The notes under the pieces were generated by a model that was not told where the DNA came from, searched no databases, and saw nothing but the letters and a program-made list of their open reading frames with translations. A program made the translations under genes and the position numbers. From NCBI GenBank assembly GCA_018992685.1, contig JACVGT010000010.1:1-64000 (forward strand): a stretch of 64,000 nt of DNA, read 5' to 3'. Every line of letters begins with the position of its first letter. Position 1 is the first letter of the stretch. Of this stretch, positions 9,891 through 36,160 are shown in pieces. Source of the stretch: Theionarchaea archaeon. Lineage in GTDB: Archaea > Methanobacteriota_B > Thermococci > Methanofastidiosales > SZ-28-30.

Positions 9891-10019
9891 TTTATGAGGA
9901 AAGGTGTGTGGACCTTCTGGTTCGAGGGACGATGCCGCATTGCCTGCAGCACTTTGCACGCAGGACTTTCCTCTGCAATCAATCCTAAGTGGTCCCTGTG
10001 CTGACGATGATTGATAGAC

Positions 10020-10670: not shown

Positions 10671-10805
10671 GAGTATACCTCCTCTTTCGACAGCCATCTC
10701 AACCACAGTAATCAAGATGGGTCATAGGTTGTTTTTTGACGTGTTTTATGAGATGTTCCTTCAAATATCCTTTCTTCTTGCTCTTATCAACTTAAGAGGA
10801 TAGTG

Positions 10806-10832
10806 CCTGAATGTTTCGGGAAAACTAATAAA
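10806..10832 (+). promoter_or_regulatory. Duplicated promoter element before M29-like copy 2
   Basis: Matches 8724-8750 at 24 of 27 positions, and similarity continues into CTTCAAAGGC downstream. It was evidently copied along with the gene. Confidence 0.5.
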
Positions 10833-10881
10833 GGGTTTCTCTTCAAAGGCGATGCATAATCTTGAAACCGGAGGAATAATC

Positions 10882-11940: not shown

Positions 11941-12013
11941 CGTACCCTTCTCTTTCTTCTTTCTTTGTATTCTGGCAGCCAGAGGGTCTCTTGAACGTTC
12001 ACACTATCTCTCG

Positions 12014-12682
12014 CTAGTCTAGTCCGTACGATTCGCCTTCTTGTAAGATGGCCACCGTGATGTCCGAGGTGGCTTCGACCTGCTCTCTGAATATCTCTGG
12101 ATCTGTGTCCCAGCGATGCATTGACAGCACGACTCCAGGGTTGATTGCACGTGCAGCCTGTGCAGCCTCAAAATTATCCATGGTGTACCTATCACCCGTT
12201 GGAAGCAGAGCTACATCCACCTTTCCCAGATTCCGCATTTCAGGGATGAAATCAGTATCCCCAGCATGATAGATCGTTTTTCCTGCAACTGTGACAAGGT
12301 AGCCGACTCCATATCCTTTGGGGTGCCAGGGGTTTCCCGGCGTTCTGAATCGTGTGATATTATATGCTTCCACAGCTCCTACGGTGATCCCATTATGGAT
12401 CTTCTCTTCTCCTGGGGCCAGTGACTCAATCTCCCCTTTAATTTTCTTAACACACTGAGGAGGGGCAATCACTACAGTGGCTTCAGTTTTAATTTTTTGA
12501 ACAGTGGCAGGCTGGCAGTGGTCACCGTGGGCATGAGTTATCAACACCAGGTCTGCTTTTTCGAAGAGTCCCCCGATCTTCTTCTCGTATTTCTTATAGT
12601 AGACCACATCAATGTAGAGAATTCCCTGGGTGGTCTTGATCTGGAACCCTGACTGACCCAGCCAAGTGAGCTGCAAATTCAT
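12014..12682 (-). CDS. Metallo-beta-lactamase-fold hydrolase (UlaG/UPF0173-like)
   Basis: About 222 residues beginning M-N-L-Q-L-T-W-L-G-Q-S-G-F, the N-terminal strand typical of the UlaG/UPF0173 group. The zinc motif T-H-A-H-G-D-H-C is near residue 52, followed by Y-H-A-G-D-T-D and a late S-M-H-R-W. Such enzymes hydrolyse lactones and phosphodiesters; the substrate here is unknown. Start at 12682 follows AAGGGATGGGT; an ATG two codons earlier (12688) is possible. It runs in the same direction as the hydrolase at 12726-13769, 43 bases downstream of it, so the two may be co-transcribed. Confidence 0.85.
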   Translation of the reverse strand: MNLQLTWLGQSGFQIKTTQGILYIDVVYYKKYEKKIGGLFEKADLVLITHAHGDHCQPATVQKIKTEATVVIAPPQCVKKIKGEIESLAPGEEKIHNGITVGAVEAYNITRFRTPGNPWHPKGYGVGYLVTVAGKTIYHAGDTDFIPEMRNLGKVDVALLPTGDRYTMDNFEAAQAARAINPGVVLSMHRWDTDPEIFREQVEATSDITVAILQEGESYGLD

Positions 12683-12725
12683 ACCCATCCCTTGTCTTTT
12701 CTACTCTTAAGGGTAACTTCTCCTG

Positions 12726-13769
12726 TCAGAGCGTAGAAAGAGCTTCTTCATTCTTGTGAGAAATCGTCTCTTCTTTCAAGAATCGGTCGAGCCAGTCGTA
12801 GGCAAGAATCCGTGCATACTGTGGGAAAGAATGATCGTTACCGTGCATGAACCAGGAGAAATGACTTTCCTTACCATATAGTCTGTATATATTATAGAGC
12901 TTTACGCCTACCTCTGCCAGAAACTCTTGATTGCCGTATGCCCGGTCATGATATGAAGATATGTTCAGGAAAGGCCGTGGTGCAATCAAAGCTGCAACCT
13001 CATGAATGTCAAAGGGGGGCTCCAGATTTTCAAGGAAGTACCTTCTCAAAGCAGGAATGTAGATATATCCATCTTCTAGTGACCATTCCATGCGAAGCTC
13101 CTCTTCCGAAAAGAGTGACATACCGCAATTACTGACACATGCCTGTATTCTGTGATCTACAGCCATGGCAAACATTGCATTGTGCCCGCCGAGAGAGTGG
13201 CCTATGACGCCAATGCGCTTAGGATCTACTCCACCCACAGTACACAGAATGTCAACAGCCGCCATTGAGTCTTCCATGTTCTTTCCCACTATGGACCACT
13301 CTGGATAGCGCTTATAGAATTCTGCTGAATCAAAAGGACTTTCACCAGGAGAAACTCGCTCTCCAGCTGTAAGATAGTCAGGAGCGAGAACGATATATCC
13401 TCGTTCTGCCAAATCATGCCCATATGCGAAATCGGTGCATCCATCCAGAGCAACTACTTCATTCTTTCCTGAATTGACTGTTTGGTGCATCGCTACAACT
13501 GCAGGAGCGGGTTTTTCCAGGGGACTGGGAATCAGTAAATACGCTGTAATTCGATCCTGCATTGCTGTATAGGAGATCCTCTGCCTCCTGTAGTGTTCCA
13601 AGTGCTCTTCATCAAGTACTACAAGATCTCGTGTCTTCCGAGGTTCTGGTGAGAACCCAAGAGTCCTATGGAGGCGCTCTCTGATGTCTTCACGGTTCTT
13701 CTCCCACTGGCCCACTGTATCGATGGTGCCATCATCCTTGGACAATAGACTCTTTATCATAGAGTTCAT
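12726..13769 (-). CDS. Alpha/beta hydrolase (acetyl-esterase/dienelactone-hydrolase-like)
   Basis: 347 residues with an alpha/beta hydrolase core. The nucleophile elbow is G-H-S-L-G-G (serine near residue 193). A late acidic residue and H (H-G-N-D-H-S-F-P near residue 314) complete a plausible triad. The long N-terminal region before the core and the motif A-P-D-Y-L-T-A-G-E-R resemble the Abhydrolase_7/acetyl xylan esterase group. No signal peptide is seen, so it is probably cytoplasmic. A minus-strand TATA-like CTTAAGTAC lies near 13798-13806. The substrate is unknown. Confidence 0.8.
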   Translation of the reverse strand: MNSMIKSLLSKDDGTIDTVGQWEKNREDIRERLHRTLGFSPEPRKTRDLVVLDEEHLEHYRRQRISYTAMQDRITAYLLIPSPLEKPAPAVVAMHQTVNSGKNEVVALDGCTDFAYGHDLAERGYIVLAPDYLTAGERVSPGESPFDSAEFYKRYPEWSIVGKNMEDSMAAVDILCTVGGVDPKRIGVIGHSLGGHNAMFAMAVDHRIQACVSNCGMSLFSEEELRMEWSLEDGYIYIPALRRYFLENLEPPFDIHEVAALIAPRPFLNISSYHDRAYGNQEFLAEVGVKLYNIYRLYGKESHFSWFMHGNDHSFPQYARILAYDWLDRFLKEETISHKNEEALSTL

Positions 13770-13949
13770 CTCTTTTCTCTGCTGTAGTTGATGCCAGCGT
13801 ACTTAAGTTCTTTTTCAATGTCTACCATATACTGAAGGAAGATACCGCTCTGTAGCTGCTTTCCCCCCTCTGTTGAGAATCTTTCTCGTACTTGGATCGA
13901 TTTTTTCCAACGTTCCTTGACCTTTCCCTCTCAACCTTCACCCACAACC

Positions 13950-13958
13950 TTTATAAGC
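13950..13958 (+). promoter_or_regulatory. TATA box of the sulfate-activation operon
   Basis: TTTATAAGC follows the BRE-like ACAACC. The transcript should start near 13980, directly beside the tandem 10-base repeat at 13981-14000. Confidence 0.65.
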
Positions 13959-13980
13959 AGTAATAATATGTAATGCATTG

Positions 13981-14000
13981 TAATTAAATATAATTAAATA
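13981..14000 (+). repeat. Tandem 10-base repeat TAATTAAATA x2 (candidate operator)
   Basis: Two perfect copies of TAATTAAATA abut each other, one helical turn apart, at the predicted transcript start. The first gene of the operon is a ribbon-helix-helix protein, and proteins of this fold commonly bind tandem sites one turn apart and repress their own operon. Autoregulation here is inference. Confidence 0.4.
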
Positions 14001-14019
14001 TAGTTACAAGGTGTTGATC

Positions 14020-14244
14020 ATGAGTGACAAACGATACACAACCGTTTCTATTCCTGTCGAATTGGCAGAAAAGATAGAGAAACGGATTGAAGGGACTGGA
14101 TTTCATTCTATTTCCAGCTATGTGACGTATGTGCTGAGACAGGTGATTTCCAGTATCGAAGAAGATGAGAAAAAGGAAGTCTTCTCTAAAGAGGATGAAG
14201 AAAAGGTGAAAGAAAGACTTCGAGGACTCGGATATCTGGAGTGA
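14020..14244 (+). CDS. Ribbon-helix-helix (CopG-like) protein, operon regulator
   Basis: 74 residues. The N-terminus K-R-Y-T-T-V-S-I-P-V-E-L-A-E-K-I forms the strand and first helix of a ribbon-helix-helix DNA-binding fold, and S-I-S-S-Y-V-T-Y-V-L-R forms the second helix. The acidic tail ends E-R-L-R-G-L-G-Y-L-E, and a nearly identical tail closes the APS kinase encoded next. ATG at 14020 follows AAGGTGTTGATC. It is the first gene of a four-gene operon, four bases before the kinase gene. It probably represses the operon at the repeat 13981-14000; a role in binding the tail of partner proteins is possible. Confidence 0.75.
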   Translation: MSDKRYTTVSIPVELAEKIEKRIEGTGFHSISSYVTYVLRQVISSIEEDEKKEVFSKEDEEKVKERLRGLGYLE

Positions 14245-14248
14245 TACC

Positions 14249-14836
14249 ATGGCATTTGTATTATGGTTTACCGGTGTCCCTGCTAGTGGAAAGTCCACAA
14301 TTGGCAGGAGAGTAGAACAACTGCTCAGAGAGCGGGGTATGCCCATTGAGAATCTGGATGCAGATGAGATCAGAGCCAACCTAAGTCCAGATCTCGGTTA
14401 TACAGAAAAAGACAGGGATATAAACACAAAGAGGCTGGCATTCCTGGCCTCCTTGCTGGAAAAACACAACGTGTCAGCCATCGTGGCGGCTGTTTCCAGC
14501 CTGAGGCGATTCAGAGACAGGGCACGTTCCATGTCCAGAAATTTTGTGGAAATTCATGTTGACTGCCCCACTGAGGAGTGCATGAGAAGAGATCCCAAGG
14601 GGCTCTATGCCAAAGCCAAGCGAGGGGAGGTCAATGACATTGCAGGACTGCATCAACCCTATGAAGCTCCCCTGAATCCTGAAGTTGTGTGTGAATCTGG
14701 CAAGTATACTGTTGAGGAATGCGCCAATCAGGTCATTCTCAAGCTGGAAGAGATGGGGCTACTCCCTCCCGAGAACTACACCTTTGAGGACGAGGAGATT
14801 ATCAAGAAGCGCCTCAAAGCGCTAGGATATCTATAG
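14249..14836 (+). CDS. cysC: Adenylylsulfate (APS) kinase
   Basis: Phosphorylates adenylyl sulfate to PAPS, the sulfate donor for sulfotransferases. It shows the Walker A loop G-V-P-A-S-G-K-S-T (residues 9-17), L-D-A-D-E-I-R, and the family block D-P-K-G-L-Y-A-K-A near 112 with Y-E-A-P-L-N-P-E after it. The catalytic part ends near residue 170. A short extension, F-E-D-E-E-I-I-K-K-R-L-K-A-L-G-Y-L, follows and matches the tail of the upstream RHH protein. ATP sulfurylase is encoded eight bases downstream. No sulfite-producing reductase is seen nearby, so PAPS may feed sulfation rather than assimilation. Confidence 0.92.
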   Translation: MAFVLWFTGVPASGKSTIGRRVEQLLRERGMPIENLDADEIRANLSPDLGYTEKDRDINTKRLAFLASLLEKHNVSAIVAAVSSLRRFRDRARSMSRNFVEIHVDCPTEECMRRDPKGLYAKAKRGEVNDIAGLHQPYEAPLNPEVVCESGKYTVEECANQVILKLEEMGLLPPENYTFEDEEIIKKRLKALGYL

Positions 14837-14844
14837 GTGATGAC

Positions 14845-15963
14845 ATGATATCACCACATGGTGGACGACTAGTCAATCGCGTCATAAGCCCTGACCTGGA
14901 TGACATAAGAGAGCTGGAACACGTTTCCATCCCTGAAGAGATGCAGGGGGATCTCAGGAATATCGGGATTGGCGTGTTCAGTCCACTGGAAGGATTTCTC
15001 TCCTACAATGAGACAGAGAGTGTGTTGAAAGAAGGAAGACTTCCCAATGGAGTCGCATGGACCATTCCCATACTTCTTCCGGTGGAAAAGAGCACCTATC
15101 CTGACGAGGGCAGTGATGTTGTCCTCAATGAAACGGCAGTCATGCACGTAGAAGAGGTATTCACCTTTGATAAGAAAGAAGCTGCCCGTTCCATATTTGG
15201 CACTGACTCCACAGACCATCCTGGGGTCAAGAGGTTCCTATCACTTCCTGATACCTTTGCGGGAGGAAAGATAGATCTCCTTAAGAATGAGAGAGAACCT
15301 TTCTATAATTTTAACCTGGAACCCAAGGAGACGAGAGTCTTGTTCAAGGAAAGGAAATGGAGGACAGTAGCTGGGTTCCAGACGCGGAATCCCCCACATA
15401 CTGGGCACGAGAACTTGCAGAAGACAGTCCTGGGATTGGTGGACGGAATTTTCATCAACCCCTTAATCGGGAGAAAAAAACCGGGAGACTTTACAGATTC
15501 AGTGATACTCAATTCATACAAGGTGATGATTGACCACTATCTGCCCAGAGACAGGGCAGTTCTCAGCATTCTAGCCACGGAAATGCGGTATGCAGGTCCT
15601 AAGGAAGCTGTATTTCATGCCATCTGCAGAAAGAATTTTGGGTGTACTCATTTTATTGTGGGGAGAGATCATGCAGGTGTTGGGAATTTCTACCATCCCG
15701 AAGCTGCCATTGAAGTCTTTGACCAGTACCCGGACCTGGGAGTGAAGATCATCTCCATAAGAGGAGATTTCTTCTACTGTAATGTCTGCAAACATCTGGC
15801 GTCTGAACGCACATGCCCTCATGATGAAAAGGATCACATCAACTTCAGCGGGACGAGAATCAGAGAACTCCTTCGAGAGAAGAAGAGACCCCCTGACGAA
15901 ATCATGAGGTCTGAAGTGTTTGAAGCACTATTACAAGAGGAACATCCATTTGTAGGTGAATAG
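14845..15963 (+). CDS. sat: Sulfate adenylyltransferase (ATP sulfurylase)
   Basis: Makes adenylyl sulfate and pyrophosphate from ATP and sulfate, the step before APS kinase. The diagnostic motif Q-T-R-N-P-P-H-T-G-H-E is near residue 178. G-R-D-H-A-G-V-G near 274 and F-S-G-T-R-I-R-E-L near 334 complete the active site. At 372 residues it is the compact homo-oligomeric type without a kinase domain. GGTGATGAC precedes the ATG. The end overlaps the start of the next gene, indicating translational coupling. Confidence 0.93.
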   Translation: MISPHGGRLVNRVISPDLDDIRELEHVSIPEEMQGDLRNIGIGVFSPLEGFLSYNETESVLKEGRLPNGVAWTIPILLPVEKSTYPDEGSDVVLNETAVMHVEEVFTFDKKEAARSIFGTDSTDHPGVKRFLSLPDTFAGGKIDLLKNEREPFYNFNLEPKETRVLFKERKWRTVAGFQTRNPPHTGHENLQKTVLGLVDGIFINPLIGRKKPGDFTDSVILNSYKVMIDHYLPRDRAVLSILATEMRYAGPKEAVFHAICRKNFGCTHFIVGRDHAGVGNFYHPEAAIEVFDQYPDLGVKIISIRGDFFYCNVCKHLASERTCPHDEKDHINFSGTRIRELLREKKRPPDEIMRSEVFEALLQEEHPFVGE

Positions 15964-15964
15964 A

Positions 15965-17326
15965 TTGAAGGTTTTTGTCATAGGATTGGACTGCGCCCCC
16001 CCAGACCTGGTTTTTGACGAGTTTGATCTCCCAAATATACAGCAACTCATGGACTGTTACGGTGAACTAACCTCCACAATACCTGCCATCACGTGTCCTG
16101 CCTGGATGAGTATGGTTTCAGGGAAAAATCCTGGCAAACTGGGGTTTTATGGGTTTAGAAACAGGAAAGGATTCTCCTACACAGATATGTGGATTGCCAA
16201 CTCACTGGCCGTCAAAGAGGATACACTCTGGGACATTTTTAGCAGGGAAGGAAAGGACGTTTCGATTATTGGTGTTCCTCAGACATACCCTCCCAAACCC
16301 GTCAATGGCATCATGGTGACGAGTTTTCTCACACCCGATATCAACCATCAGTACACATATCCAGACGCACTGAAGACAGAAATCAAGGATCTGGTGGGAG
16401 AGTACATCCTCGACGTAGAGGAATTCAGGACGGAAGACAAACACAAGCTACTCTCTCAGATCTATGAGATGACAGAGAAGCGGTGCACTGTTGTCAAACA
16501 CTACCTCAAGAAGAAATGGGACTTTTTCATGTGGGTAGAAATGGGACCTGACCGTCTCCATCATGGATTATGGAAGTTCTTTGATCCAACTCATAGAAAG
16601 TACACCGAATCGGACTTACAATCTGCCATCCCTGAATACTACCAGTATCTAGATAACCAAATCGGAGAGATGCTTTCCCTTGTGGACGAAGACACCTGCG
16701 TCATGGTGGTATCTGATCACGGAGCCAAGAAGATGGAAGGGTGCATCAATGTCAATGACTGGCTGATCCAGGAGGGGTATTTGCACCTCAAGGAGGAACC
16801 CACACAGATCGTACCTATAAAGAAGGTGCAGATAGACTGGACAAAAACTAGTGTGTGGGCATGGGGCGGTTATTACAGCAGGATCTTCTTCAATGTCAAA
16901 GGCAGGGAAGATGCAGGTGTCCTGACGAGAGAGGAGTACCACGATGTCCGGGAGGAGGTCAAGAAGAAGCTTGAATCCATGAAAGATGATCGTGGGGCCC
17001 CTCTGAATACGAAAGCGTTCAGGCCAGAAGACATCTACACTGGGAAGTACGTGAGGGAAGCTCCTGATCTCATTGTCTACTTTGGCGATCTTTACTGGAG
17101 AGCAACCGAAAGCGTGGGACACGATTCGATATACTCATTCGAGACAGAGATCGGACCGGATGACTGTGTACATGCCCAGAAAGGTATTTTCATCCTGAAA
17201 GACCCTGAAGAAAGAGTGTCCGGGAAAAAAGAGAACTTGAATATTATGGATTGCGCTCCTACGATTCTCGACCTCATGGGAAGCACAAAGCCGCCCGGCA
17301 TGGATGGTCACTCGCTCCTGGAATGA
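15965..17326 (+). CDS. Alkaline-phosphatase-superfamily phosphodiesterase/nucleotide pyrophosphatase
   Basis: About 453 residues of the type I phosphodiesterase group. V-I-G-L-D-C-A-P-P-D near residue 5 holds the first metal Asp. T-C-P-A-W-M-S-M-V-S-G near 42 supplies the nucleophile Thr, and V-S-D-H-G-A-K near 245 gives further ligands. It lacks a signal peptide. Placed after APS kinase and ATP sulfurylase, it may cleave PAP, PAPS, APS or a sulfate/phosphate ester; this is inferred from context. Start: TTG at 15965 has GGTGA five bases ahead and yields the usual M-K-V-F-V-I-G-L-D; GTG at 15956 is the alternative. Confidence 0.8.
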   Translation: MKVFVIGLDCAPPDLVFDEFDLPNIQQLMDCYGELTSTIPAITCPAWMSMVSGKNPGKLGFYGFRNRKGFSYTDMWIANSLAVKEDTLWDIFSREGKDVSIIGVPQTYPPKPVNGIMVTSFLTPDINHQYTYPDALKTEIKDLVGEYILDVEEFRTEDKHKLLSQIYEMTEKRCTVVKHYLKKKWDFFMWVEMGPDRLHHGLWKFFDPTHRKYTESDLQSAIPEYYQYLDNQIGEMLSLVDEDTCVMVVSDHGAKKMEGCINVNDWLIQEGYLHLKEEPTQIVPIKKVQIDWTKTSVWAWGGYYSRIFFNVKGREDAGVLTREEYHDVREEVKKKLESMKDDRGAPLNTKAFRPEDIYTGKYVREAPDLIVYFGDLYWRATESVGHDSIYSFETEIGPDDCVHAQKGIFILKDPEERVSGKKENLNIMDCAPTILDLMGSTKPPGMDGHSLLE

Positions 17327-17390
17327 TTTTCTTTTTCCATTTTCATTCTCTTTCTCAGGAGGTTCAGTCCTCGTGGGGTTACTGGCTGTT

Positions 17391-18122
17391 CTATAGGAGT
17401 TCTCTGGTGATATGCTGTGCAGCTTCCAGTACTCCTTCCCCGAGGTTTTTCTGAGAGACGTAACCCTCTCGTTCTCTTACAATCTCTTTGACTCTCTCAT
17501 GTGCATTTCCAACTGCCACAGGATACCCCACGCAGGACAACATTTCCAGGTCATTCATTCCATCCCCCACCCCAATCATATCCTCAAAGGGGATGTCAAG
17601 GCGCTCTCTCACTACTGTTAACCCGGTTTTCTTACTTAGCCCATTCTGCATCACATCTACTGCGTCCACATGAGCAATTACATACAGATTCAGACGTTCC
17701 TCTTGTATGATGTCCTTCAGATCTTGACTGACCTGGGGGATGTCTTCCCACTTTCTTGGGAAGAGACTGAACAGCGTCTCCTTTGGCTCTTCCCACACCT
17801 CGTATGCCGTGCTTCTATTTTCGAAGAAATGCTGTCTCACCTTCTTAATATCATTAATATGCCTGGTGTACAGTACTTTCTCTTTCTCACGAGGGAAGAA
17901 AACGTGTCCTCCCGATTCGCCAATTATTACCGTATCCTGGCGGAGCAACCCTGAAAATACCAGCCCTCCTGTAATATACCAGGGATGTTTGCCCGAGGCA
18001 AAGGAAATGTCCAGCCCTCCCCGTTCCAATTCCAGTATGCCGTCAATACTCTCCTTCTGGACTGGACATCCAGGAGGATTCAACACACCGTCAATATCGA
18101 AAACACAGAGCCTATAGGTCAT
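17391..18122 (-). CDS. HAD-superfamily (Cof-type) phosphatase
   Basis: 243 residues. The nucleophile motif F-D-I-D-G-V-L is at residues 6-12, S-F-A-S-G-K is the second motif, and G-V-G-D-G-M-N-D-L-E-M-L near 195 is the fourth, with a cap domain between as in the IIB (Cof/phosphoglycolate phosphatase) subgroup. The ATG at 18122 follows GGAGGGG; reading on upstream would run through the kinase gene in another frame. It overlaps the GHMP kinase end by 11 bases, so both likely act on one metabolite, perhaps a sugar phosphate. The substrate is not known. Confidence 0.85.
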   Translation of the reverse strand: MTYRLCVFDIDGVLNPPGCPVQKESIDGILELERGGLDISFASGKHPWYITGGLVFSGLLRQDTVIIGESGGHVFFPREKEKVLYTRHINDIKKVRQHFFENRSTAYEVWEEPKETLFSLFPRKWEDIPQVSQDLKDIIQEERLNLYVIAHVDAVDVMQNGLSKKTGLTVVRERLDIPFEDMIGVGDGMNDLEMLSCVGYPVAVGNAHERVKEIVREREGYVSQKNLGEGVLEAAQHITRELL

Positions 18123-27631: not shown

Positions 27632-28855
27632 TTATGGATTGTTCTTATTCCTAAAGAAGAAGTAGAACAGTGCCGTGCCCACCACATAGATGAACCCTGT
27701 GATCTGGAATGCCTGGGTAAAGCCCCCTGCAGACAGTAGATACCCTCCAATGTCTGACCCAAATGCTCTGGAAAAGGTGGATCCAAATTGGGACAGACTA
27801 TTTGCCTTTCCACGTTCGTGCTCTGAGATTTCATCCATGAAAAAGTTCTGCTGGGCAGGGCTGGCCGTGTTCATCAAGGTGGTTCTGAAAAAGTATCCAA
27901 TGAATGATGGAAACAGTGTATCAGACACGGTGATCAGTAGCAGGAAGGGAATGGACAAGATCTGCGTCAACACAATGGAACCCACTTTCCCGTATCTTCT
28001 CACAACAAAAGGAAGCACCAGAGAGGCAATCCCCATGGACAATTCTCCCAGTGAAAACATGAATCCAATCTGAGCAGGTGTTGCCTGGAGTACCTCAGAG
28101 AAGTAAACATTGAAGAAGGGGACAATGACTCCTGCGCCAAACCCAATCAATGATGAGCAGAACACGAACTGACCCACAAACCTCTTCTTGTCCCCGAACA
28201 GATGAAGGCTGGAGGAGGAAGGGGTGGCAACTCTCTTCTTTTCTGTGATGAAAAACAGAGGGAAAAAGGCCAGCAACGTGAAAACGCCTGCAGTTAACAA
28301 CGTATACTGATACTGCACAGTCACTGTTACTCTTGCCACAGAAAACGCAGCAGGCAACAATCCGCCTATGAGACTTCCTATCATCCGGGAGAAACTCCTG
28401 AGAGCAGCATCCACACTGAAGAGGTGCATTCTCTCATATGGGTTGCTCTGCTCCATCATGAAGGGTGCAATAACCACCATGATCAAGGAATTCGACAAGC
28501 CACGGACACTGTTCCCTACGAGAAGCAGGAGTTTGTCTTGGGCAACACTTACTGCAAGAGTAGATCCAATCATCAACCCCGTAGAGAGGAGGAGCGTGTT
28601 CTTCCTGCCAATCTTATCTGAGATGGCTCCTCCAGGGAACAGGAACACGGCTGAAAAGATGAGGTTGGAGGAAATCACAATCCCCAGAAATGCGGCAGAA
28701 TAACCCAGCTCCAGGATATACAGGTTGAAAATCACATTGAAAATGCCCAACCCAACAGTCACCAGGCAGTGACTGAGTAGGAATATTTTGCTGTTTCTGG
28801 AGATGGACCTGATTCTGTCCAAGTAGTCAGTGATTTCATCCTTGATGGCGGCCAT
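27632..28855 (-). CDS. MFS transporter
   Basis: 407 residues with about twelve hydrophobic segments. The MFS loop 2-3 motif appears as G-G-A-I-S-D-K-I-G-R-K-N-T, and a similar region recurs in the second half. TTTTTATAG on the minus strand at 28876-28885 predicts transcription from the ATG itself, hence leaderless. The substrate cannot be told; it is of the drug/sugar efflux type. Its end nearly touches the end of the regulator gene at 27010-27627. Confidence 0.85.
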   Translation of the reverse strand: MAAIKDEITDYLDRIRSISRNSKIFLLSHCLVTVGLGIFNVIFNLYILELGYSAAFLGIVISSNLIFSAVFLFPGGAISDKIGRKNTLLLSTGLMIGSTLAVSVAQDKLLLLVGNSVRGLSNSLIMVVIAPFMMEQSNPYERMHLFSVDAALRSFSRMIGSLIGGLLPAAFSVARVTVTVQYQYTLLTAGVFTLLAFFPLFFITEKKRVATPSSSSLHLFGDKKRFVGQFVFCSSLIGFGAGVIVPFFNVYFSEVLQATPAQIGFMFSLGELSMGIASLVLPFVVRRYGKVGSIVLTQILSIPFLLLITVSDTLFPSFIGYFFRTTLMNTASPAQQNFFMDEISEHERGKANSLSQFGSTFSRAFGSDIGGYLLSAGGFTQAFQITGFIYVVGTALFYFFFRNKNNP

Positions 28856-28926
28856 TGGGTGGTAGAATTTGGGCCACTATAAAAAGATATGGGTTGAAAG
28901 GCTCTGGCACTGTCTGCCAACAGCAT

Positions 28927-30159
28927 TCACAGTGCCTTCAGGTATGTGGGAGCAGCCCCGGTAATGGTAACCCTGGAAAATGACCCCATGCGACCTGTGC
29001 ACACCACCGGTTTGTAATTGAAAAGTCTGGCTATCATGGTGGAAGGAACAGTCCCTTTTTGATTGACAAGGACTTCATAAGATTTTCCCACGTATTTCCT
29101 GTTAATGGAATGAGAAATGTCCATTCGCAACTTATATAAGAGGCGGGAACGTTCTTTCTTTATCCAGTCAGGGATTTGAGGCATCCTGGAGGCCTGTGTT
29201 CCCGGACGTGGCGAGAATCGAGTAACATTTATCTTATCTGGATTAATCTTCTTTACCAGAACGAGGGTGTCGTGAAACTGTTCTTCTGTTTCGGTGGGGA
29301 ATCCTGCAATGACATCTGTACATAGGTACAGATCCGGGAATTCTTTCCTGAAAGCCATACAGACAGTCACGAATTCATCTACTGTGTATTTTCTGTTCAT
29401 GAGTTGGAGGATGTGGTCGTTCCCCGATTGAACGGGAATGTGCAGGAATGTATAGATCTTTTCATGGTGGTAGACAGAAAGAAGATCCTCCAGGATGTCA
29501 AGAGCATGATTGGGATTCATCATTCCCACCCTGATTCTGAATTTTCCTTCCAGAGAGACCAGGTTCTCCAAGAGGAGCGGGAGTCTTTCCCCTGTGTTGA
29601 GGTCTGCGCCATAGCACCCCGTGTCCTGGGAAGTGATCTGCAGTTCCTTATATTCCTGAGAAATGAACTGGGCTGCCGTCTTGACGATTGATTCTGCGGG
29701 GTAGCTGTACAAGTGACCCCGGGCGAACCGGGCAGCGCAATAACTGCAGGATCCCACGCAGCCCTCAGAAATGGGAATGAGAGCATTAATCCCATCACCT
29801 GTACGAGGATAGCACAGCTTATTCTGTTTCTCTTCTCGTATAATGCGAACAGTGTGCCCTTCTTTGACCCTCTGGACAGCTTCAACAATGTCGTAAACAT
29901 TTGTTCCCACAACGTTTACATCCAGATTGGATATCTTGGGAAGACATCCTGCCACAATCAGGCATTTGTTCCTGGCTTTGATCTCCTCAATTCGCTTCCT
30001 GATCTTGTGTTCAGTGGGTCCTTTAACCCCACAGGAATTTATAATCACAACGTCAGCTTCGTCCAGACTCTCTGTGATCTGAGGGTAGAGTAGGGCTTTG
30101 ATAATTTCCGAATCTGCTTTGTTCATGGTGCAGCCATAGGTTTCCAGGTAGATCGACAT
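28927..30159 (-). CDS. tRNA t6A37 methylthiotransferase (CDKAL1/MtaB type)
   Basis: A radical SAM enzyme adding a methylthio group to t6A37 of ANN-decoding tRNAs. The N-terminal UPF0004 domain has Y-G-C-T-M-N and N-S-C-G-V-K cysteines and A-G-C-L-P-K. The radical SAM cluster is C-V-G-S-C-S-Y-C near residue 142. A C-terminal TRAM-like segment follows Y-V-G-K-S-Y-E-V-L-V near 360. At 410 residues it fits the archaeal/eukaryal e-MtaB group. A TATA-like ATATTATATATC at 30181-30192 on the minus strand gives a leaderless start. Confidence 0.9.
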   Translation of the reverse strand: MSIYLETYGCTMNKADSEIIKALLYPQITESLDEADVVIINSCGVKGPTEHKIRKRIEEIKARNKCLIVAGCLPKISNLDVNVVGTNVYDIVEAVQRVKEGHTVRIIREEKQNKLCYPRTGDGINALIPISEGCVGSCSYCAARFARGHLYSYPAESIVKTAAQFISQEYKELQITSQDTGCYGADLNTGERLPLLLENLVSLEGKFRIRVGMMNPNHALDILEDLLSVYHHEKIYTFLHIPVQSGNDHILQLMNRKYTVDEFVTVCMAFRKEFPDLYLCTDVIAGFPTETEEQFHDTLVLVKKINPDKINVTRFSPRPGTQASRMPQIPDWIKKERSRLLYKLRMDISHSINRKYVGKSYEVLVNQKGTVPSTMIARLFNYKPVVCTGRMGSFSRVTITGAAPTYLKAL

Positions 30160-30433
30160 TTGCTGATTACAGGTGTCGAAGATATATAATATTTGTTGAC
30201 AGGTGCTGCCCCTGGTTCATGAAGTGTGGAACAGGATGGTCGCCTCAAGCCTCCAGTATCTGAACACACGAGTATGAGGTATTCAGAACTGCGGCTGATC
30301 GAGTACATATTTGCGGGCAAGAGATTCTGCCAAAAGGCTTGAAGATTTATTCAAATATTGAACGCAGGACTGTACGCTACGCCCAACTCCTCTATCCAGT
30401 GTTCACTGAGAGCTTGCAGGACAGCTGCGAAAA

Positions 30434-30442
30434 TCTATATTA
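30434..30442 (+). promoter_or_regulatory. TATA box of the CLC gene
   Basis: TCTATATTA predicts transcript start at about 30464, the A of an ATG; this decides the CLC start in favour of 30464 over the in-frame GTG at 30443. The spacer 30160-30433 otherwise shows no clear gene. Confidence 0.55.
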
Positions 30443-30463
30443 GTGATGATGAGAATGTGCAGC

Positions 30464-31765
30464 ATGCCAGAACTGCCAGAGGAGCCCAGACTGCCCAGCC
30501 GACGTGAGCTTGAACAGGCGATCTGGTCTGTGATGATAGCAATTTGTGTTGTACCTGTGGTGTACTCTTTTTCTCTTTTAGTCCGAGAGAGATTTTCTCT
30601 CATTCAAGCAGCAGAGCCCATGGCGGCCTTTCCCTATCACTGGTGGTTGGTGTTCATCTGCCTGGGGGGAGGTGCAGTTGTGGGACTTATCATCTGGAAG
30701 ATCGCCCCGGAATCAGAAGGTCCAGGACTGCAGGTGGTTATTGCAGCTTTCAATAAACGGGACGGTCATTTGAGAACCAGAACGGGCGCCTCAAAGTATG
30801 TAGCCACGCTCATAACAGTAGGATCTGGCACTCCCAACGGTATTGTCAGCCCTTCTGCTGTTCTGGGGAATTCAGTGGCCAGCATGATAGGAAGAATAGG
30901 AAATACGGAAAAAGACAGAGACCTGCAGAAGACTCTTTCCCTCTGTGGAGTTTCTGCCGCCCTTTCAACGCTACTGGGAGCACCAGTGGGTGCTGCACTA
31001 TTTGCGGTTGAAGTGGTGTATGGCAATTACATATTGTATAGGAGGTTCTTCTACTGTTTGATTTCCAGCGTTACAGCGCATGCGGTGACCCATTTTCTCG
31101 GTATGGAAACAGCGTACTTTGACATCACTCTTCCGGAGTTATCGCTCACGGGGTACGGACTTTTCCTTGTGATACTCACGGCGCTGTTCTCAGTAATGAT
31201 AAATATTGGATATATTTCTGTATATCAGAGAATCCATGACTTTTTTTCAGATCTATCCCACAGAATGATTCCATGGCTTGTTCCTGCAGTAGGTATGGGA
31301 CTGGCTGCCCTTATAATGGTTCCCCTCTATCAGAAGTTGATTGACTTCAGTCTTCTGGGCGGGAGTGCTTTCAGAATTACTGCAGCTGCAGCTGCCCCCT
31401 GGTATGTGATAGCTGTACTGATTGTGGTCATCGTGATAGCTACTTCTCTGGTGGCAGGCTCAGGGGGGAGTGGCGGGCTCTTCATGCCCGTTATGACAGT
31501 AGGAGTGCTGACAGGGATTCTGGTTGGAAATGCATATCCTCCTTTCATCTTTTTCTTTATCGTGGCTGGGATGAGCGCCGCCCTGTGCACCACACTCAAT
31601 GTTCCGCTGGCATCAGCTGTCCTGGGCATTGAATTGTTTGGTCCTCCTGCTATTCTTCCTTCAATCATAGGCGCCCTGACAGGATATATTTTTGCCAAAC
31701 GTTATGTCATATATCATGAAATCCAGTGGGAGGCATTGAAGGAATCAGATCAAGAGAAAGACTAG
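30464..31765 (+). CDS. CLC-family chloride channel, gating Glu replaced
   Basis: 433 residues with ten or more hydrophobic segments. G-S-G-T-P-N-G-I-V-S-P-S-A-V-L-G (121-136) aligns with the family's G-K/R-E-G-P filter motif, and the gating Glu falls on Val128. F-A-V-E-V-V (180-185) aligns with the inner F-x-x-E-E, with the proton Glu as Val. Later G-S-G-G-S-G-G-L-F-M-P matches the GxFxP filter. Loss of both Glu suggests a passive anion channel rather than a Cl-/H+ exchanger. There is no CBS domain. A perfect inverted repeat follows the stop. Confidence 0.8.
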   Translation: MPELPEEPRLPSRRELEQAIWSVMIAICVVPVVYSFSLLVRERFSLIQAAEPMAAFPYHWWLVFICLGGGAVVGLIIWKIAPESEGPGLQVVIAAFNKRDGHLRTRTGASKYVATLITVGSGTPNGIVSPSAVLGNSVASMIGRIGNTEKDRDLQKTLSLCGVSAALSTLLGAPVGAALFAVEVVYGNYILYRRFFYCLISSVTAHAVTHFLGMETAYFDITLPELSLTGYGLFLVILTALFSVMINIGYISVYQRIHDFFSDLSHRMIPWLVPAVGMGLAALIMVPLYQKLIDFSLLGGSAFRITAAAAAPWYVIAVLIVVIVIATSLVAGSGGSGGLFMPVMTVGVLTGILVGNAYPPFIFFFIVAGMSAALCTTLNVPLASAVLGIELFGPPAILPSIIGALTGYIFAKRYVIYHEIQWEALKESDQEKD

Positions 31766-31900: not shown

Positions 31901-33115
31901 TTATTCATCTCCATGGGAAGAAGCATCAGACCTCCTTAGCATGAAAAGAGCAGGTATTCCAAGCAGAATTACCACTGATGCTACATACCAGGATCCGATA
32001 ATGGAGGCTCGCTCTGCAATCACACCAAAAATGATTAACCCCAGAGCTGCAGCTCCTCTGCAGATCATGGAATCAAATGATAGAATCGTCGCCCTGGTCT
32101 CTGCTGGGATATGGTCGTTTATATACGCTTTCCGGGTGGGAAGCATGGTACCCCTCCCCACAAAGTACAGGAAGAAGAGAGGCAGCGACAACACAAAGTA
32201 GTTTGATAATCCCAGGACCAGAGGTGTGGCAGCACACAGAACAGTTGACAGGATCAGCACGTGATATCGCTTGAAGAGTGACGTCCAGTGCACCAGGAGA
32301 CTGCCCACCATCAGTCCCAGCGACAGGGCAACCCATGCGAGACCTACCTGTTGGGTGTTGGCGATCTCCTGGAAGTAGGGCTGCCAATACTGCATCACAG
32401 CCATGTATGCAAACATTGAGATGGCGCCAGGTATGATCAGGAATAACACCACCTTATTCTTTACCCCATAGGTAATGCTGAATCCAATGATTTTTTTCAT
32501 CTGTGATGCTCCATTCCTCAAAGAGAGGTTCTCCCTTCCTAGGTGCACCTCCTCCATCAGTAGATATCCTATCCAGAGAGTTGCCAGAGCCAACACCGCT
32601 CCCGCCAGAAAGGGATATGCTAAATTGCGTGAACCCAGGAATGCTCCAGAGAGTCCTGCAACAATCGACATGCCGCTTGCCAGGGTAGCCGCTCTCCCGA
32701 AGAGCCTGTCTTTCTTTTGTGTGTATCCGTTGGCATCCAGAGAGTCCACGAACCAGGCTTCCAGCGCACCCGAATGGAATGTCATGCCTATGGCAGCCAC
32801 TATTTCTGCAAGGGCAAAAAAGAGAAGAGACCCTGAGAAGAAGTAGATGAAAAAAGAAAAAGACATGAATAAGCAGGCAATCAGGAAGGAACGCTTGCGT
32901 CCAAACATGTCTGATACTGCACCTGTGGGAATCTCCAGAAGGAACACACTCCCCATGTAGAAGATATTTACCAGGTTGACCTGCAACAGATTCAGCCCCT
33001 TGGAAAGCATGAAGAGAATGTTTGTCGCCTGAATGGTGTTTACAGACAACATAAATAAGCATTCCAACAGGTAGAATGTGAGTACCGTCTTTTTCAGTCT
33101 ATGTATGAAGCCCAC
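31901..33115 (-). CDS. MFS transporter, putative exporter of the RiPP operon
   Basis: 404 residues with about twelve hydrophobic segments. The MFS loop motif is G-A-V-S-D-M-F-G-R-K-R-S near residue 60, and R-K-A-Y-I-N in the second half is the matching loop. GTG at 33115 follows AAAGGTG and lies 17 bases inside the end of the upstream radical SAM gene, so it is translationally coupled. As last gene after a precursor and two maturases it probably exports the finished peptide; an import or self-protection role is possible. Export by MFS rather than an ABC transporter is less usual, and no dedicated peptidase is encoded nearby. Confidence 0.8.
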   Translation of the reverse strand: MGFIHRLKKTVLTFYLLECLFMLSVNTIQATNILFMLSKGLNLLQVNLVNIFYMGSVFLLEIPTGAVSDMFGRKRSFLIACLFMSFSFFIYFFSGSLLFFALAEIVAAIGMTFHSGALEAWFVDSLDANGYTQKKDRLFGRAATLASGMSIVAGLSGAFLGSRNLAYPFLAGAVLALATLWIGYLLMEEVHLGRENLSLRNGASQMKKIIGFSITYGVKNKVVLFLIIPGAISMFAYMAVMQYWQPYFQEIANTQQVGLAWVALSLGLMVGSLLVHWTSLFKRYHVLILSTVLCAATPLVLGLSNYFVLSLPLFFLYFVGRGTMLPTRKAYINDHIPAETRATILSFDSMICRGAAALGLIIFGVIAERASIIGSWYVASVVILLGIPALFMLRRSDASSHGDE

Positions 33116-34454
33116 CTTTGGTTCGTTCTTTCAAGAAGGGATAGTAGTATCGGGCGGACTCGAAGAGAACATCTTGTACATCAGTGCAGAATGGGCTGCC
33201 GATACTCCCTTCCTTTTCTGCAGCAAGCTTTGTACACCCTCCACCGCATACGAGCGCCAGGTTGCAGGACGTACATTTTTGCATGCATAGAATACTCCTG
33301 TTCCTCCATGATCCCAAGACGCTCTCATCTATTTCGAGTGTTGGAAAGAATCGTCCCACTTTGTATTCTTCAACACCAGCACTATCAACGCAGGTATAGA
33401 CATCCCCATTCAAATCAAAACAATAGCGAGTCATGTTCCCTCCACAGAATTTGAACTGGGGAGATGGAAGATGCCCAGTTTCCAAGACCTTTCTGAAGAT
33501 TTCAGCTCCGACCCAACCAACAAGGTGAATGACACTCATATCTTCACAATTTCGGTAGAAGTCAAAGATTTGATGTAGTGAGACATGTTCTGGCAGTCTG
33601 TGTTCATATTCCATGCAGCTGATGTCTCTCATGGGGGCAAGGTAGGGGACAATCAGGTTATTTCCTTTCCAGCCCTGTTCAACAAAGAAATGGGCCAGCT
33701 CAGGAAGAAGAGGTAAATTCTGAGCATCCACGTTGATGTGAATTGCTATCTTTATGTTGTTATCCACTGCCTTCTGAACTCCTCGTATGATGGGAGCAAA
33801 CGTCCCTCCAGACGTGGCAGAGATGCGCCTCTTGTTGTGTATCTCTTCAGGCCCATCCACTGTGACCTGGATATACTCCAGCTTATAGGAAGACAACATA
33901 TCGGTGTAGAATTCCAGATCCACGCCATTCGAGACAATTTTGGGTTTCCACCCGCGATTGTTGCTTTCTTCAAGGGTTTTCTGGATAACCTCAGATTGCC
34001 TCTTCCTCTTCAAGAGTGGTTCTCCCCCGAAAATCACAAAGTAGGGGAGTTCCTTTGATGGTGATCTTTCCTGAAGATAGTCCATGCTTTCAAAGGCAGC
34101 CTGAAGACATTCATCATCAATGACAGCACTTTTCAAGGCTGAATGATCCTGAAAGCAGTAGCTGCAACGGAGGTTGCATGCGTAGGTGGGGTACAGATAG
34201 AAAACGGGCAGACTCGTTCTGATCTTCTCCTCATACTCTCTGAACCGATAGTTCAGAAACCTGTCCTCGTGTTCCTCGATTTCGTACACGTATCCCTTTC
34301 TCTTCAAAGTGAGCAGTATGTTGGCATCACTTATCTCTTCACCACGTTCCAGACTCTTGAGGATTTCCACCATTTCATCATCAATGATATCCATGGCAGA
34401 AGACAGATTATTCATCAAAATGTACATTCCTTCTTCATCTACTGGCAGCAGCAA
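33099..34454 (-). CDS. Radical SAM/SPASM peptide maturase B
   Basis: About 451 residues. The radical SAM site is C93-N-L-R-C97-S-Y-C100, and F-G-G-E-P-L-L follows. A C-terminal SPASM region carries F-C-G-G-N, C-T-S-C and V-C-G-G-G-C-T for two auxiliary Fe-S clusters. The first 80 residues resemble a small peptide-recognition domain. It is paralogous to the maturase upstream. The start is unusual: homology to maturase A (L-S-R-Y near its start) extends to about 34475, where the codon is ATA, not ATG. The TTG at 34454 is the first standard start, and the frame is open back to the TAG of maturase A. It likely modifies the CALEVQPTF precursor. Confidence 0.85.
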   Translation of the reverse strand: MLLPVDEEGMYILMNNLSSAMDIIDDEMVEILKSLERGEEISDANILLTLKRKGYVYEIEEHEDRFLNYRFREYEEKIRTSLPVFYLYPTYACNLRCSYCFQDHSALKSAVIDDECLQAAFESMDYLQERSPSKELPYFVIFGGEPLLKRKRQSEVIQKTLEESNNRGWKPKIVSNGVDLEFYTDMLSSYKLEYIQVTVDGPEEIHNKRRISATSGGTFAPIIRGVQKAVDNNIKIAIHINVDAQNLPLLPELAHFFVEQGWKGNNLIVPYLAPMRDISCMEYEHRLPEHVSLHQIFDFYRNCEDMSVIHLVGWVGAEIFRKVLETGHLPSPQFKFCGGNMTRYCFDLNGDVYTCVDSAGVEEYKVGRFFPTLEIDESVLGSWRNRSILCMQKCTSCNLALVCGGGCTKLAAEKEGSIGSPFCTDVQDVLFESARYYYPFLKERTKGGLHT

Positions 34455-34481
34455 ATTGTAACGACTAAGATGTATACTATG

Positions 34482-35852
34482 CTAACCTCCCTCTGCTCTT
34501 TTCTTTATGTAGGGGTAGTAGTAGTGAAACCCGAGATTCAATATCTGGTGTATTCCCACACAGGGGCTGGCCTGCAATGAACCATGTTTTGTCACCGCGA
34601 TGAACGTACAGCCTCCCCCGCACAGGAGATTGTAGGAGCAGGTGCTGCACTTTGGAAGTGTCAAGATGTTTCTCGTTTCCCATTGGTTGAGCAAGTCAAC
34701 ATAGAACTCCGATTCCGGAAAGAACTTTCCGATAACCTGACTCTTCTCCCCCGCGAATCCAGCGCATGCGTAGATGTCCCCGAATGTGTCGAAGCATAAC
34801 CGCTTCATTCCTGCCCCACAGAAGTTGAAAAGGGGAGAATACAGCCGGCCCTTTTTCACCAGGTTTTCTATGCTTTCCATCCATCTCCATCCCATCAGTG
34901 TGATGATTTTTGTCTCCGGACGCTCTGCATACATGTTCAGTACTGTCTTGAGCAACTGCGGAAGCGGAACAACATGTTCCTGTCCAATGCAACCAGAATC
35001 CCTCACAGCCGCAATGTACGGCGTGATCAACCCGGTGTCCTTCCAGCCTCTTTCTATGATAAAGGAGGCCATCTCAGGCAGTGTTGAGAGATTCTCTTTG
35101 TCCACATTGATGCGCAGTGCAATGTTCATTCCTATTTCCTTTAGAACCCTGTCTATGTTATCTGCAATTCGGTCAAAGCTTCCCGATCCATCCGCGAAAA
35201 TCCTCCTCCTGTTGTGTGTGTCTCTCGGTCCATCCAGGGTGACCTGAATATGTTTATCCACATATTTCCGGACTATGTCTATGTAATGACCAAGATCAAC
35301 CCCATTCGTAATTATTTTTGAGTGAAATCCCATATCCTGGCATTTCTTGAGGATGTATGTAACTGCTTCTTTCTGCTCTTTGCGATACATCAGTGGTTCT
35401 CCACCGAATAGGGTGAGCAAGGGCTGTTCTTTGGCTCCTCCTTCTGAATGGAATTTTTCCATGACCTCAAATGCCTTGTCAACAAGACGGGGTTTGATAA
35501 CATCTCCAATTCTCATGTCCTCTGTCTGAAAACAGTAGGTGCAGCGGAGATTGCATCCATATGTTGGATAGATAAAAAAAGACTCGGGCTCTGAAGCAAG
35601 GTTCTTGTTCCACTGCTCGAAAGCTTCTGTGATCAACTTTTCTTCATCTTCTTTTTTTAGATAAATGTATCTTCTCCTTGCCAGTTCATAGAGTATTTCT
35701 CTGTTATTCACCAACTCCCCCTGACTTAAGGTCTTGATGACGTCAATAACCTCTTTATCAACTATATCAACAGCTCCTGAAAGAGGATTCACCAAGATGA
35801 TGTCCTCTGTATCAGAAATTGGAAAAAAGAAAGTATAACGACTAACGTACAT
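34482..35852 (-). CDS. Radical SAM/SPASM peptide maturase A
   Basis: 456 residues. The radical SAM cluster motif is Y-G-C100-N-L-R-C104-T-Y-C107-F-Q, and L-F-G-G-E-P-L-M follows. The SPASM cysteines occur in F-C-G-A-G, C-S-T-C and L-C-G-G-G-C-T. The N-terminal 80 residues (D-I-V-D-K-E-V-I-D-V-I-K, then E-I-L-Y-E-L-A-R-R) look like a winged-helix peptide-binding domain. ATG at 35852 follows GGTGATC, 29 bases after the precursor stop. SPASM enzymes of this kind form thioether or C-C bonds in peptides. With six cysteines in the precursor, thioether formation is the leading guess. Confidence 0.88.
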   Translation of the reverse strand: MYVSRYTFFFPISDTEDIILVNPLSGAVDIVDKEVIDVIKTLSQGELVNNREILYELARRRYIYLKKEDEEKLITEAFEQWNKNLASEPESFFIYPTYGCNLRCTYCFQTEDMRIGDVIKPRLVDKAFEVMEKFHSEGGAKEQPLLTLFGGEPLMYRKEQKEAVTYILKKCQDMGFHSKIITNGVDLGHYIDIVRKYVDKHIQVTLDGPRDTHNRRRIFADGSGSFDRIADNIDRVLKEIGMNIALRINVDKENLSTLPEMASFIIERGWKDTGLITPYIAAVRDSGCIGQEHVVPLPQLLKTVLNMYAERPETKIITLMGWRWMESIENLVKKGRLYSPLFNFCGAGMKRLCFDTFGDIYACAGFAGEKSQVIGKFFPESEFYVDLLNQWETRNILTLPKCSTCSYNLLCGGGCTFIAVTKHGSLQASPCVGIHQILNLGFHYYYPYIKKRAEGG

Positions 35853-35881
35853 GGCGATCACCAGATCAAGTAGTGTGCGCG

Positions 35882-36109
35882 TTATGGCACAGCAACTTCA
35901 AGAGCACAGAATGTTGGCTGGACTTCAAGAGCACAGAATGTTGGCTGGACTTCAAGAGCACAGAATGTTGGCTGGACTTCAAGAGCACAGAATGTTGGCT
36001 GGACTTCAAGAGCACAGAATGTTGGCTGGACTTCAAGAGCACAATACAGTGTTCCGCTTTCGTCCTTCAGGTTAAGGTTCTCGTCACTAACCACAGATTT
36101 CATGAACAT
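35882..36109 (-). CDS. RiPP precursor peptide with six CALEV(QPTF) repeats
   Basis: A 75-residue peptide. Residues 1-22 form a polar, acidic leader (M-F-M-K-S-V-V-S-D-E-N-L and on to L-Y). Residues 23-67 are five perfect copies of CALEVQPTF, and the end is CALEVAVP. Cysteines fall at 23, 32, 41, 50, 59 and 68, exactly nine apart. AGGAGGTGA lies seven bases ahead of the ATG, and a TATA box is at 36151. Two SPASM maturases and an MFS carrier follow within the operon. Six cysteines within 46 residues recall ranthipeptide (SCIFF/freyrasin) precursors, but the sequence matches no precursor I know. The product may be one multi-bridged peptide or be cut into repeat units. Confidence 0.85.
   Translation of the reverse strand: MFMKSVVSDENLNLKDESGTLYCALEVQPTFCALEVQPTFCALEVQPTFCALEVQPTFCALEVQPTFCALEVAVP
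35895..36043. repeat. 27-base tandem repeat, about 5.5 perfect copies
   Basis: Units start at 35895, 35922, 35949, 35976 and 36003, with a 14-base partial copy at 36030-36043. All full copies are identical in DNA, third codon positions included. Because 27 is a multiple of three, other frames also stay open across the repeat; only the minus-strand frame has a promoter, ribosome site, leader and downstream maturases. There are no spacers, so this is not a CRISPR array. Confidence 0.95.
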
Positions 36110-36150
36110 GTGTTCACCTCCTAAAGGTTTTACTTTCCATCCCGCACGAG

Positions 36151-36160
36151 TATTTAGATC
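36151..36160 (-). promoter_or_regulatory. TATA box of the RiPP operon
   Basis: GATCTAAATA on the minus strand predicts transcription from about 36129, leaving a leader of about 20 bases that includes AGGAGGTGA. No other promoter is seen within the operon. Confidence 0.5.

What the first reader, a model, noticed from the sequence alone, without database searches (positions are those of the whole stretch)
31901..36160. A new-looking archaeal RiPP operon: repeat-core precursor, two SPASM maturases and an MFS carrier
Seen: in one minus-strand operon, a 75-residue peptide with five perfect CALEVQPTF units and a final CALEV is followed 29 bases later by a radical SAM/SPASM protein, a second one 27 bases after that, and an overlapping MFS gene. 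Known: SPASM enzymes next to small Cys-rich peptides build sactipeptides, ranthipeptides and related RiPPs; six Cys in about 45 residues recalls SCIFF and freyrasin. Inference: each Cys is bridged within or across units (candidates are Glu at +3 or Thr at +7), giving a six-bridge ladder or several nonapeptide products. RiPPs with such maturases are poorly documented in archaea and I know no family with this core.
Basis: partly seen in the sequence, partly recalled or inferred. Interest (0 to 1): 0.93.

Follow-up and report, generated by a model that had tools for sequence, protein, structure and literature searches.

The report
Archaeal repeat-peptide operon with paired maturases
Two related Theionarchaea genomes carry a short gene built around identical nine-residue, cysteine-containing units directly ahead of genes for two predicted radical-SAM enzymes and a predicted exporter, an arrangement that likely makes secreted, cysteine-crosslinked peptides of a kind known mainly from bacteria.

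Summary
Window 35882-36109(-) encodes 75 residues: a 22-residue leader, five perfect CALEVQPTF units and a truncated CALEVAVP. Two intact radical-SAM/SPASM genes and an MFS gene follow. The peptide is a real gene. Theionarchaea archaeon SZ_28-30 has the same operon with four units; at near-saturated synonymous divergence (dS about 1.1 in the enzyme genes) the peptide shows 12 synonymous and 2 nonsynonymous changes (leader plus one unit). Units within a genome are DNA-identical, so the array is homogenised. Two database homologues have three and two full units plus a truncated one. Both enzymes model confidently as an RRE-like domain plus SPASM maturase; SPASM1's closest solved structure is the thioether maturase CteB, but no NCBIfam maturase model shown reaches its cutoff. 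In SZ_28-30 an enzyme 36% identical to SPASM1 sits beside another repeat precursor (three FCATLP units). Most likely this is a repeat-core radical-SAM RiPP, each Cys bridged within its own CALEV, best candidate Glu+3 (17 of 17 Cys; Thr+7 14 of 17). The bond, unit release and function are untested. It is a new archaeal variant of a known kind.

The parts
36151..36158 (-). TATA-like box (TCTAAATA), 49 bases before the ATG
   Evidence: Pattern found by script; sister genome has TTTAAATA at 50 bases. Promoter role inferred
36114..36122 (-). Ribosome-binding site AGGAGGTGA of the peptide gene
   Evidence: Same sequence at the same distance in SZ_28-30 and in the FCATLP locus L054
35882..36109 (-). 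Precursor peptide gene, 75 residues
   Evidence: frame under purifying selection; homologues P0001, P0002
36044..36109 (-). Leader, 22 residues (MFMKSVVSDENLNLKDESGTLY)
   Evidence: 10 synonymous, 2 nonsynonymous changes against SZ_28-30. Leader role inferred
35909..36043 (-). Five identical 27-base units, CALEVQPTF
35882..35908 (-). Truncated last unit CALEVAVP and stop
   Evidence: lost to a TGA in SZ_28-30, CALEVMVP in P0001 and P0002
34482..35852 (-). SPASM1, radical-SAM/SPASM enzyme, 456 aa
   Evidence: PF04055; CX3CX2C, GGEP and seven SPASM Cys invariant in a 50-row alignment; model pLDDT 93.4; CteB closest by sequence and fold
33099..34472 (-). SPASM2, radical-SAM/SPASM enzyme, 457 aa from the homologous start (ATA here, ATG in the sister genome)
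   Evidence: PF04055; same motifs; model pLDDT 92.6; 39% identical to SPASM1
31901..33115 (-). MFS transporter, 404 aa, overlapping SPASM2 by 17 bases
   Evidence: PF07690; same place in SZ_28-30. Export of the product inferred

Best explanation
This operon likely makes a radical-SAM RiPP: the 75-residue peptide is predicted to be a precursor whose leader would be held by RRE-like domains of the two SPASM enzymes, which would bridge each Cys inside its own CALEV segment, most likely to Glu three residues on (a Cys-X2-Glu thioether), before the MFS protein would export the product. Shown here: the gene order and its conservation in a second genome, selection on the peptide's reading frame, homogenised units with variable copy number, and intact cluster-binding motifs in both enzymes. 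Inferred: leader recognition, the chemistry, the Glu acceptor, how the two enzymes share the work, and export. Because unit number varies while unit sequence is held identical, I favour independent rings on interchangeable units, possibly cut apart later by a protease encoded elsewhere, over a ladder with a fixed number of rings. Rough odds: RiPP precursor with its maturases 0.88; Cys-based crosslink 0.7; Cys-Glu in particular 0.4; units released as separate peptides 0.4.
Against: No modification is demonstrated. Neither enzyme reaches the cutoff of any maturase model shown, PapB included. The related FCATLP precursors have no Glu+3 (Leu there; 47 of 59 units have Glu at +6), so Glu is not the common feature of the two repeat types. 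Only one Pfam model of RRE type could have been expected at the N-terminus (PqqD) and it did not match. No protease family among the nine proteins scanned around the peptide. Unit counts come from draft assemblies, where a 149-base perfect array can be collapsed.
Confidence: 0.6

Rival explanations
1. The Cys are bridged to another carbon: sactipeptide-like to the alpha carbon of a neighbour, or to a residue next to Cys such as the aromatic at -1, with Glu a bystander.
For: Aromatic at -1 and Ala+1 are at 17 of 17 Cys here and are shared with the FCATLP units, which lack Glu+3.
Against: The closest solved enzyme by sequence and fold is CteB and PapB scores second among the profiles; both are known, partly from recall, as makers of non-alpha thioethers. 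Not decisive.
Confidence: 0.3
2. The product is one polymer-like chain of rings (a ladder), not separate nonapeptides; bridges may cross unit borders, for example from Cys to the Thr two residues before it.
For: No dibasic or other obvious cleavage site between units and no protease among nine proteins scanned.
Against: Cys number varies from 3 to 6 in four versions. The first Cys has Thr at -3, the later ones at -2, and the last has no Thr after it, so a Thr rule cannot serve all Cys alike.
Confidence: 0.4
3. Only one enzyme is catalytic on the peptide; the other is a partner whose own radical chemistry is not needed, as reported for thuricin CD.
For: [quoted passage not shown] In the FCATLP locus the second enzyme has lost CX3CX2C and GGEP but keeps its SPASM motif.
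Against: In this operon both enzymes keep these motifs, in both genomes (for the sister copies; for the window's).
Confidence: 0.3
4. The peptide is a Cys-rich metal-binding or redox peptide, or a precursor of a cofactor, on which the enzymes do something other than crosslink.
For: Evenly spaced Cys; SPASM enzymes also make cofactors (recalled: PQQ, mycofactocin).
Against: One unit type with variable copy number and an adjacent MFS gene fit an exported peptide better; no direct test.
Confidence: 0.15
5. The array is a minisatellite that happens to stay open and is not translated.
For: The unit is open in five of six frames, so openness is cheap.
Against: 12 synonymous to 2 nonsynonymous changes, conserved leader, ribosome-binding site and place in the operon.
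Confidence: 0.03

Closest known systems
FCATLP triple-repeat precursors (G001:C132, L054, and 20 database homologues; found here, name mine)
   Same: Same genus; precursor ahead of a SPASM enzyme 36% identical to SPASM1; aromatic-Cys-Ala units; same ribosome-binding site
   Different: Three units in 19 of 20 homologues, separated by diverged spacers; other leader; partner enzyme without radical-SAM motif; a B12-radical-SAM gene follows
Freyrasin/PapA-PapB ranthipeptides
   Same: Several Cys-Xn-acid motifs in one precursor, one SPASM maturase family; PapB profile second best for SPASM1 (PMC9413430)
   Different: Cys-X3-Asp/Glu there, Cys-X2-Glu here; profile cutoff 340 bits, SPASM1 scores 130.9; two enzymes and DNA-identical units here
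SCIFF maturase CteB
   Same: Closest solved structure of SPASM1 by sequence and fold
   Different: SCIFF profile 108.8 bits against a cutoff of 425; SCIFF precursor is not a tandem of identical units (recalled)
CefB (Cys-every-fifth) maturase, NF038107
   Same: Best NCBIfam profile for both enzymes, full length; regular Cys spacing implied by the name
   Different: 159.4 and 143.7 bits against a cutoff of 600; Cys every ninth residue here. No paper found
TvgA/TvgB repeat-core radical-SAM RiPP
   Same: Tandem-motif precursor modified repeatedly by a radical-SAM enzyme; authors expect several products per precursor (PMC9062424, passages)
   Different: TVGG motif, cyclopropylglycine, no Cys; bacterium; cluster includes an oxidase and peptidase/transporters
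Thuricin CD (TrnC/TrnD)
   Same: Two radical-SAM enzymes in one pathway (PMC12093266, abstract)
   Different: Two precursors there; one tandem precursor here

Membership tests
RiPP (general) | Translated precursor with leader and core, under selection | tested here: met
   the leader/core division is inferred from repeat borders
RiPP (general) | Modifying enzymes encoded next to the precursor, conserved together | tested here: met
   Window and SZ_28-30, 2 of 2 loci with DNA available
RiPP (general) | Post-translational modification of the core | not testable with these tools
   Needs expression and mass spectrometry
Radical-SAM/SPASM peptide maturase | CX3CX2C and the seven-Cys SPASM pattern | tested here: met
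   Invariant in alignments A1 (50 rows) and A2 (36 rows)
Radical-SAM/SPASM peptide maturase | N-terminal RRE | tested here: inconclusive
   Three-strand, three-helix domain in both models, aligned with CteB's N-terminus; Pfam PqqD does not match
PapB-type ranthipeptide | Maturase reaches the NF047865 cutoff (340 bits) | tested here: not met
   130.9 and 115.4 bits
PapB-type ranthipeptide | Thioether from Cys to a non-alpha carbon of Asp/Glu | not testable with these tools
   Glu+3 at 17 of 17 Cys allows it
SCIFF | Maturase reaches TIGR03974 cutoff (425 bits) | tested here: not met
   108.8 and 83.5 bits
CefA/CefB | Maturase reaches NF038107 cutoff (600 bits) | tested here: not met
   159.4 and 143.7 bits
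CefA/CefB | Cys at every fifth residue | tested here: not met
   Cys at every ninth residue; the criterion is read from the family name
Sactipeptide | Thioether to an alpha carbon | not testable with these tools
   No bond determined
Repeat-core (multi-core) RiPP precursor | Tandem core units after one leader | tested here: met
Repeat-core (multi-core) RiPP precursor | Units released as separate products | not testable with these tools
   No protease found among nine proteins scanned; could lie elsewhere

The most novel reading that the evidence does not exclude
A new archaeal RiPP class in which a cassette of DNA-identical, concertedly evolving nonapeptide units is converted by two cooperating SPASM enzymes into many copies of one small Cys-Glu bridged macrocycle, with unit number, changed by expansion and contraction of the array, acting as a dosage dial; the FCATLP precursors would be a second branch of the same archaeal aromatic-Cys-Ala repeat class.
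Probability: 0.25. Interest if true: 0.78.

Novelty: new variant of a known kind. Interest (0 to 1): 0.62.

Why it matters
It is a compact test case (one 75-residue precursor, two enzymes, one carrier) for radical-SAM RiPP chemistry in uncultured archaea; the characterised archaeal RiPPs I saw in print are lanthipeptides (PMC12144867, passages). Identical units make the chemistry easy to read, since every unit should show the same mass change, and the natural versions with 2, 3, 4 and 5 full units are a ready series for asking whether the enzymes act processively and whether unit number sets ring number or dose. The same two genomes hold further SPASM loci beside short Cys-rich peptides, so Theionarchaea may be a neglected RiPP source.

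Tried and rejected
Minisatellite or non-coding reading: rejected on synonymous-biased divergence and the conserved leader. Membership of the PapB, SCIFF or CefB families: cutoffs not met (the best 25 of 80 families for SPASM1 and of 68 for SPASM2 were shown). Tandem-unit precursors elsewhere in the window's own genome: a script over 13 stretches around other radical-SAM matches found none; its only three repeat hits were low-complexity Q/A- or P/V/L/C-rich frames of one spot in L023. The e-MtaB gene as part of the pathway: set aside, it meets the curated model TIGR01578 of the tRNA enzyme, 412 bits against 314.7. SPASM1 and SPASM2 as a fresh duplication inside this operon: not supported, since P0010 and P0011 group with SPASM1 and SPASM2 does not, though those forks are weak (94/85 and 92/78).

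Genome-collection scan: 95 stretches matched, 2 encoded relatives; the Planctomycetota one (L002, 21%) showed no short ORF with ribosome-binding site near its radical-SAM gene and was dropped. Fold search: families not listed are not excluded. Paper searches: in an open-licence PMC library only. CALEVQPTF, FCATLP, KAFCATLP: no paper. Any two of Cys-every-fifth, CefB, radical SAM: no paper. Theionarchaea with RiPP or radical SAM: none of the 20 listed of 206 and none of the 15 listed of 7,456 holds the name; the rest were not seen.

Limits: P0001 and P0002 came without DNA, so their genomic place is unknown; P0001 and the SPASM1 relative P0005 both list 5350 as longest contig, which suggests, but does not show, one contig. 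The protein search takes only lengths of 0.55-1.75 times the query, so one-unit or very long versions would be missed. In the tree I used 30 of the 120 listed proteins (those 120 being the best of 573) and 43 window or locus proteins; left out were P0003 (identical to SPASM1), P0004 (87%, taken as the sister copy), the fragment P0009, P0036-P0122, and of the 49 locus proteins the pseudo-enzyme of L054, L055_6373, L058_6908, L063_4009, both of L067, L072_5039 and L075_5038. In one search the unit search required FC (or the one FHSALP), so F and C there are by construction, and P0142 (E 0.71) is a weak member. The p value treats changes as independent and counts the unit once.
Full report
Observation. 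The window holds, on the minus strand and in this order, a 75-codon gene (35882-36109), SPASM1 (34482-35852), SPASM2 (33099-34472 by homology) and an MFS gene (31901-33115), with short or negative spacing. The 75-codon gene is 22 leader codons, five identical 27-base units for CALEVQPTF and a truncated CALEVAVP; it is the only tandem array Tandem Repeats Finder reports in the 64 kb.

Organism. A locus with SPASM1 87% identical lies in Theionarchaea archaeon SZ_28-30, contig JACVGW010000047.1, 21,429 bases. A 4-kb stretch of it is found, reversed, in contig C128 (also 21,429 bases) of genome G001, which is in the same genus as the window's genome. So the window comes from a Theionarchaea genome, 3.03 Mb in 45 contigs.

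The peptide is a real, selected gene. SPASM1 and SPASM2 differ between the two genomes at dS 1.08 and 1.15 and dN 0.075 and 0.11. Across the leader there are 10 synonymous and 2 nonsynonymous changes, across one unit 2 and 0; pooled, 12 to 2 where site numbers predict 80% nonsynonymous, p = 2.5e-7. The unit's own dS, 0.41, is lower than the gene average but rests on two changes. The two silent changes alter residues in the other open frames of the unit and bring a stop into one of them. The ribosome-binding site AGGAGGTGA lies at the same distance, and a TATA-like box within one base of the same distance.

Concerted evolution and copy number. All five full window units are identical, all four SZ_28-30 units are identical, and the two sets differ at the same two silent positions in every unit. 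Units within a genome are therefore homogenised, by recent expansion or by conversion. In SZ_28-30 the Cys codon of the truncated unit is TGA, so its array ends exactly after a complete unit, and the sequence behind the stop has changed. Two database proteins with the same leader type have three and two full units and end in CALEVMVP; their leaders are identical to each other and they differ by one unit. Cys counts are thus 6, 4, 4 and 3. Assembly collapse of a perfect 149-base array could cause part of the variation. The peptide was found in 2 of 115 genomes of the phylum, both of this genus.

A second repeat precursor. In SZ_28-30 (G001:C132, L054) a 79-residue peptide with three KAFCATLP-like units ends 61 bases before the homologous start of a SPASM enzyme 36% identical to SPASM1. 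The next gene keeps the SPASM motif but has lost CX3CX2C and GGEP, and a B12-radical-SAM gene, cut by the contig end, follows. The precursor has 20 database homologues at E of 1 or better, 19 of them below 1e-8; one is labelled Methanofastidiosia and one Methanosarcina; 19 of 20 have three units and one, the weak P0142, has two. It occurs in 1 of 115 phylum genomes. Both repeat types share aromatic-Cys-Ala, but the FCATLP type has Leu, not Glu, at +3.

Other RiPP-like loci. Of six further SPASM stretches of the window's genome looked at by script, three (on C10, C18 and C1 near 309 kb) have short Cys-rich peptides with a ribosome-binding site that I count as candidates; a 30-residue three-Cys frame in L016 was not counted. 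In SZ_28-30, 7 of 13 further contigs taken (C13, C30, C29, C4, C71, C105, C52) have such candidates. These were chosen by script and eye without a chance control, so they are a lead.

Mechanism. I read this as a repeat-core radical-SAM RiPP. RRE-like domains would hold the leader; one or both SPASM enzymes would bridge each Cys within CALEV. [quoted passage not shown] Two-enzyme precedent: thuricin CD (PMC12093266, abstract). Repeat-core precedent: TvgA (PMC9062424, passages). None of these steps was tested here for this operon, and the absence of Glu+3 in the FCATLP units counts against Glu as a rule for the whole enzyme group.

Verdict. The core, the archaeal operon and the homogenised cassette are new to the libraries and papers searched, while the kind, a repeat-core radical-SAM RiPP, is known (PMC9062424).

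Noticed in passing
L054 (G001:C132), 956-4832: FCATLP triple-repeat precursor, SPASM enzyme, a SPASM-like protein without radical-SAM motif, and a B12-radical-SAM gene cut by the contig end; 20 database homologues of the precursor, one labelled Methanosarcina.
   Followed up: partly
L012 4957-5157, L013 7931-8089, L014 7155-7646: Short Cys-rich peptides with ribosome-binding sites beside other SPASM genes of the window's genome (for example cores CGGCACGCFVVNCMGLSAC and CGCGGCCCAFYCRTLIC; two CMCC peptides).
   Followed up: partly
L055 (G001:C13) 8945-17410; L058, L060, L061, L064: SZ_28-30 has a dense cluster of radical-SAM/SPASM genes on C13 with three candidate Cys-rich precursors, and further candidates on C30, C29, C4 and C71.
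   Followed up: no
L066 1845-5686 and L068 5213-5365 (G001:C105, C52): Candidate precursors with spaced Cys and Gly/Pro-rich repeats beside another pair type of SPASM genes.
   Followed up: no
window 34472: The start codon of SPASM2 that is ATG in SZ_28-30 reads ATA in the window, behind a conserved GGAGGT; a start change, a rare start or an assembly error.
   Followed up: partly
window 27632-31765: In SZ_28-30 a methylthiotransferase-like gene and a second MFS gene follow the operon directly; in the window a chloride-channel gene on the other strand (30443-31765) lies between them and the operon. The window's methylthiotransferase meets the tRNA e-MtaB model.
   Followed up: partly
L071 6030-6251, L075 4294-4635 (same class, family f5): Cys-rich short ORFs (73, 44 and 66 residues) next to more distant SPASM genes, with ABC-transporter-like genes nearby by eye.
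   Followed up: no
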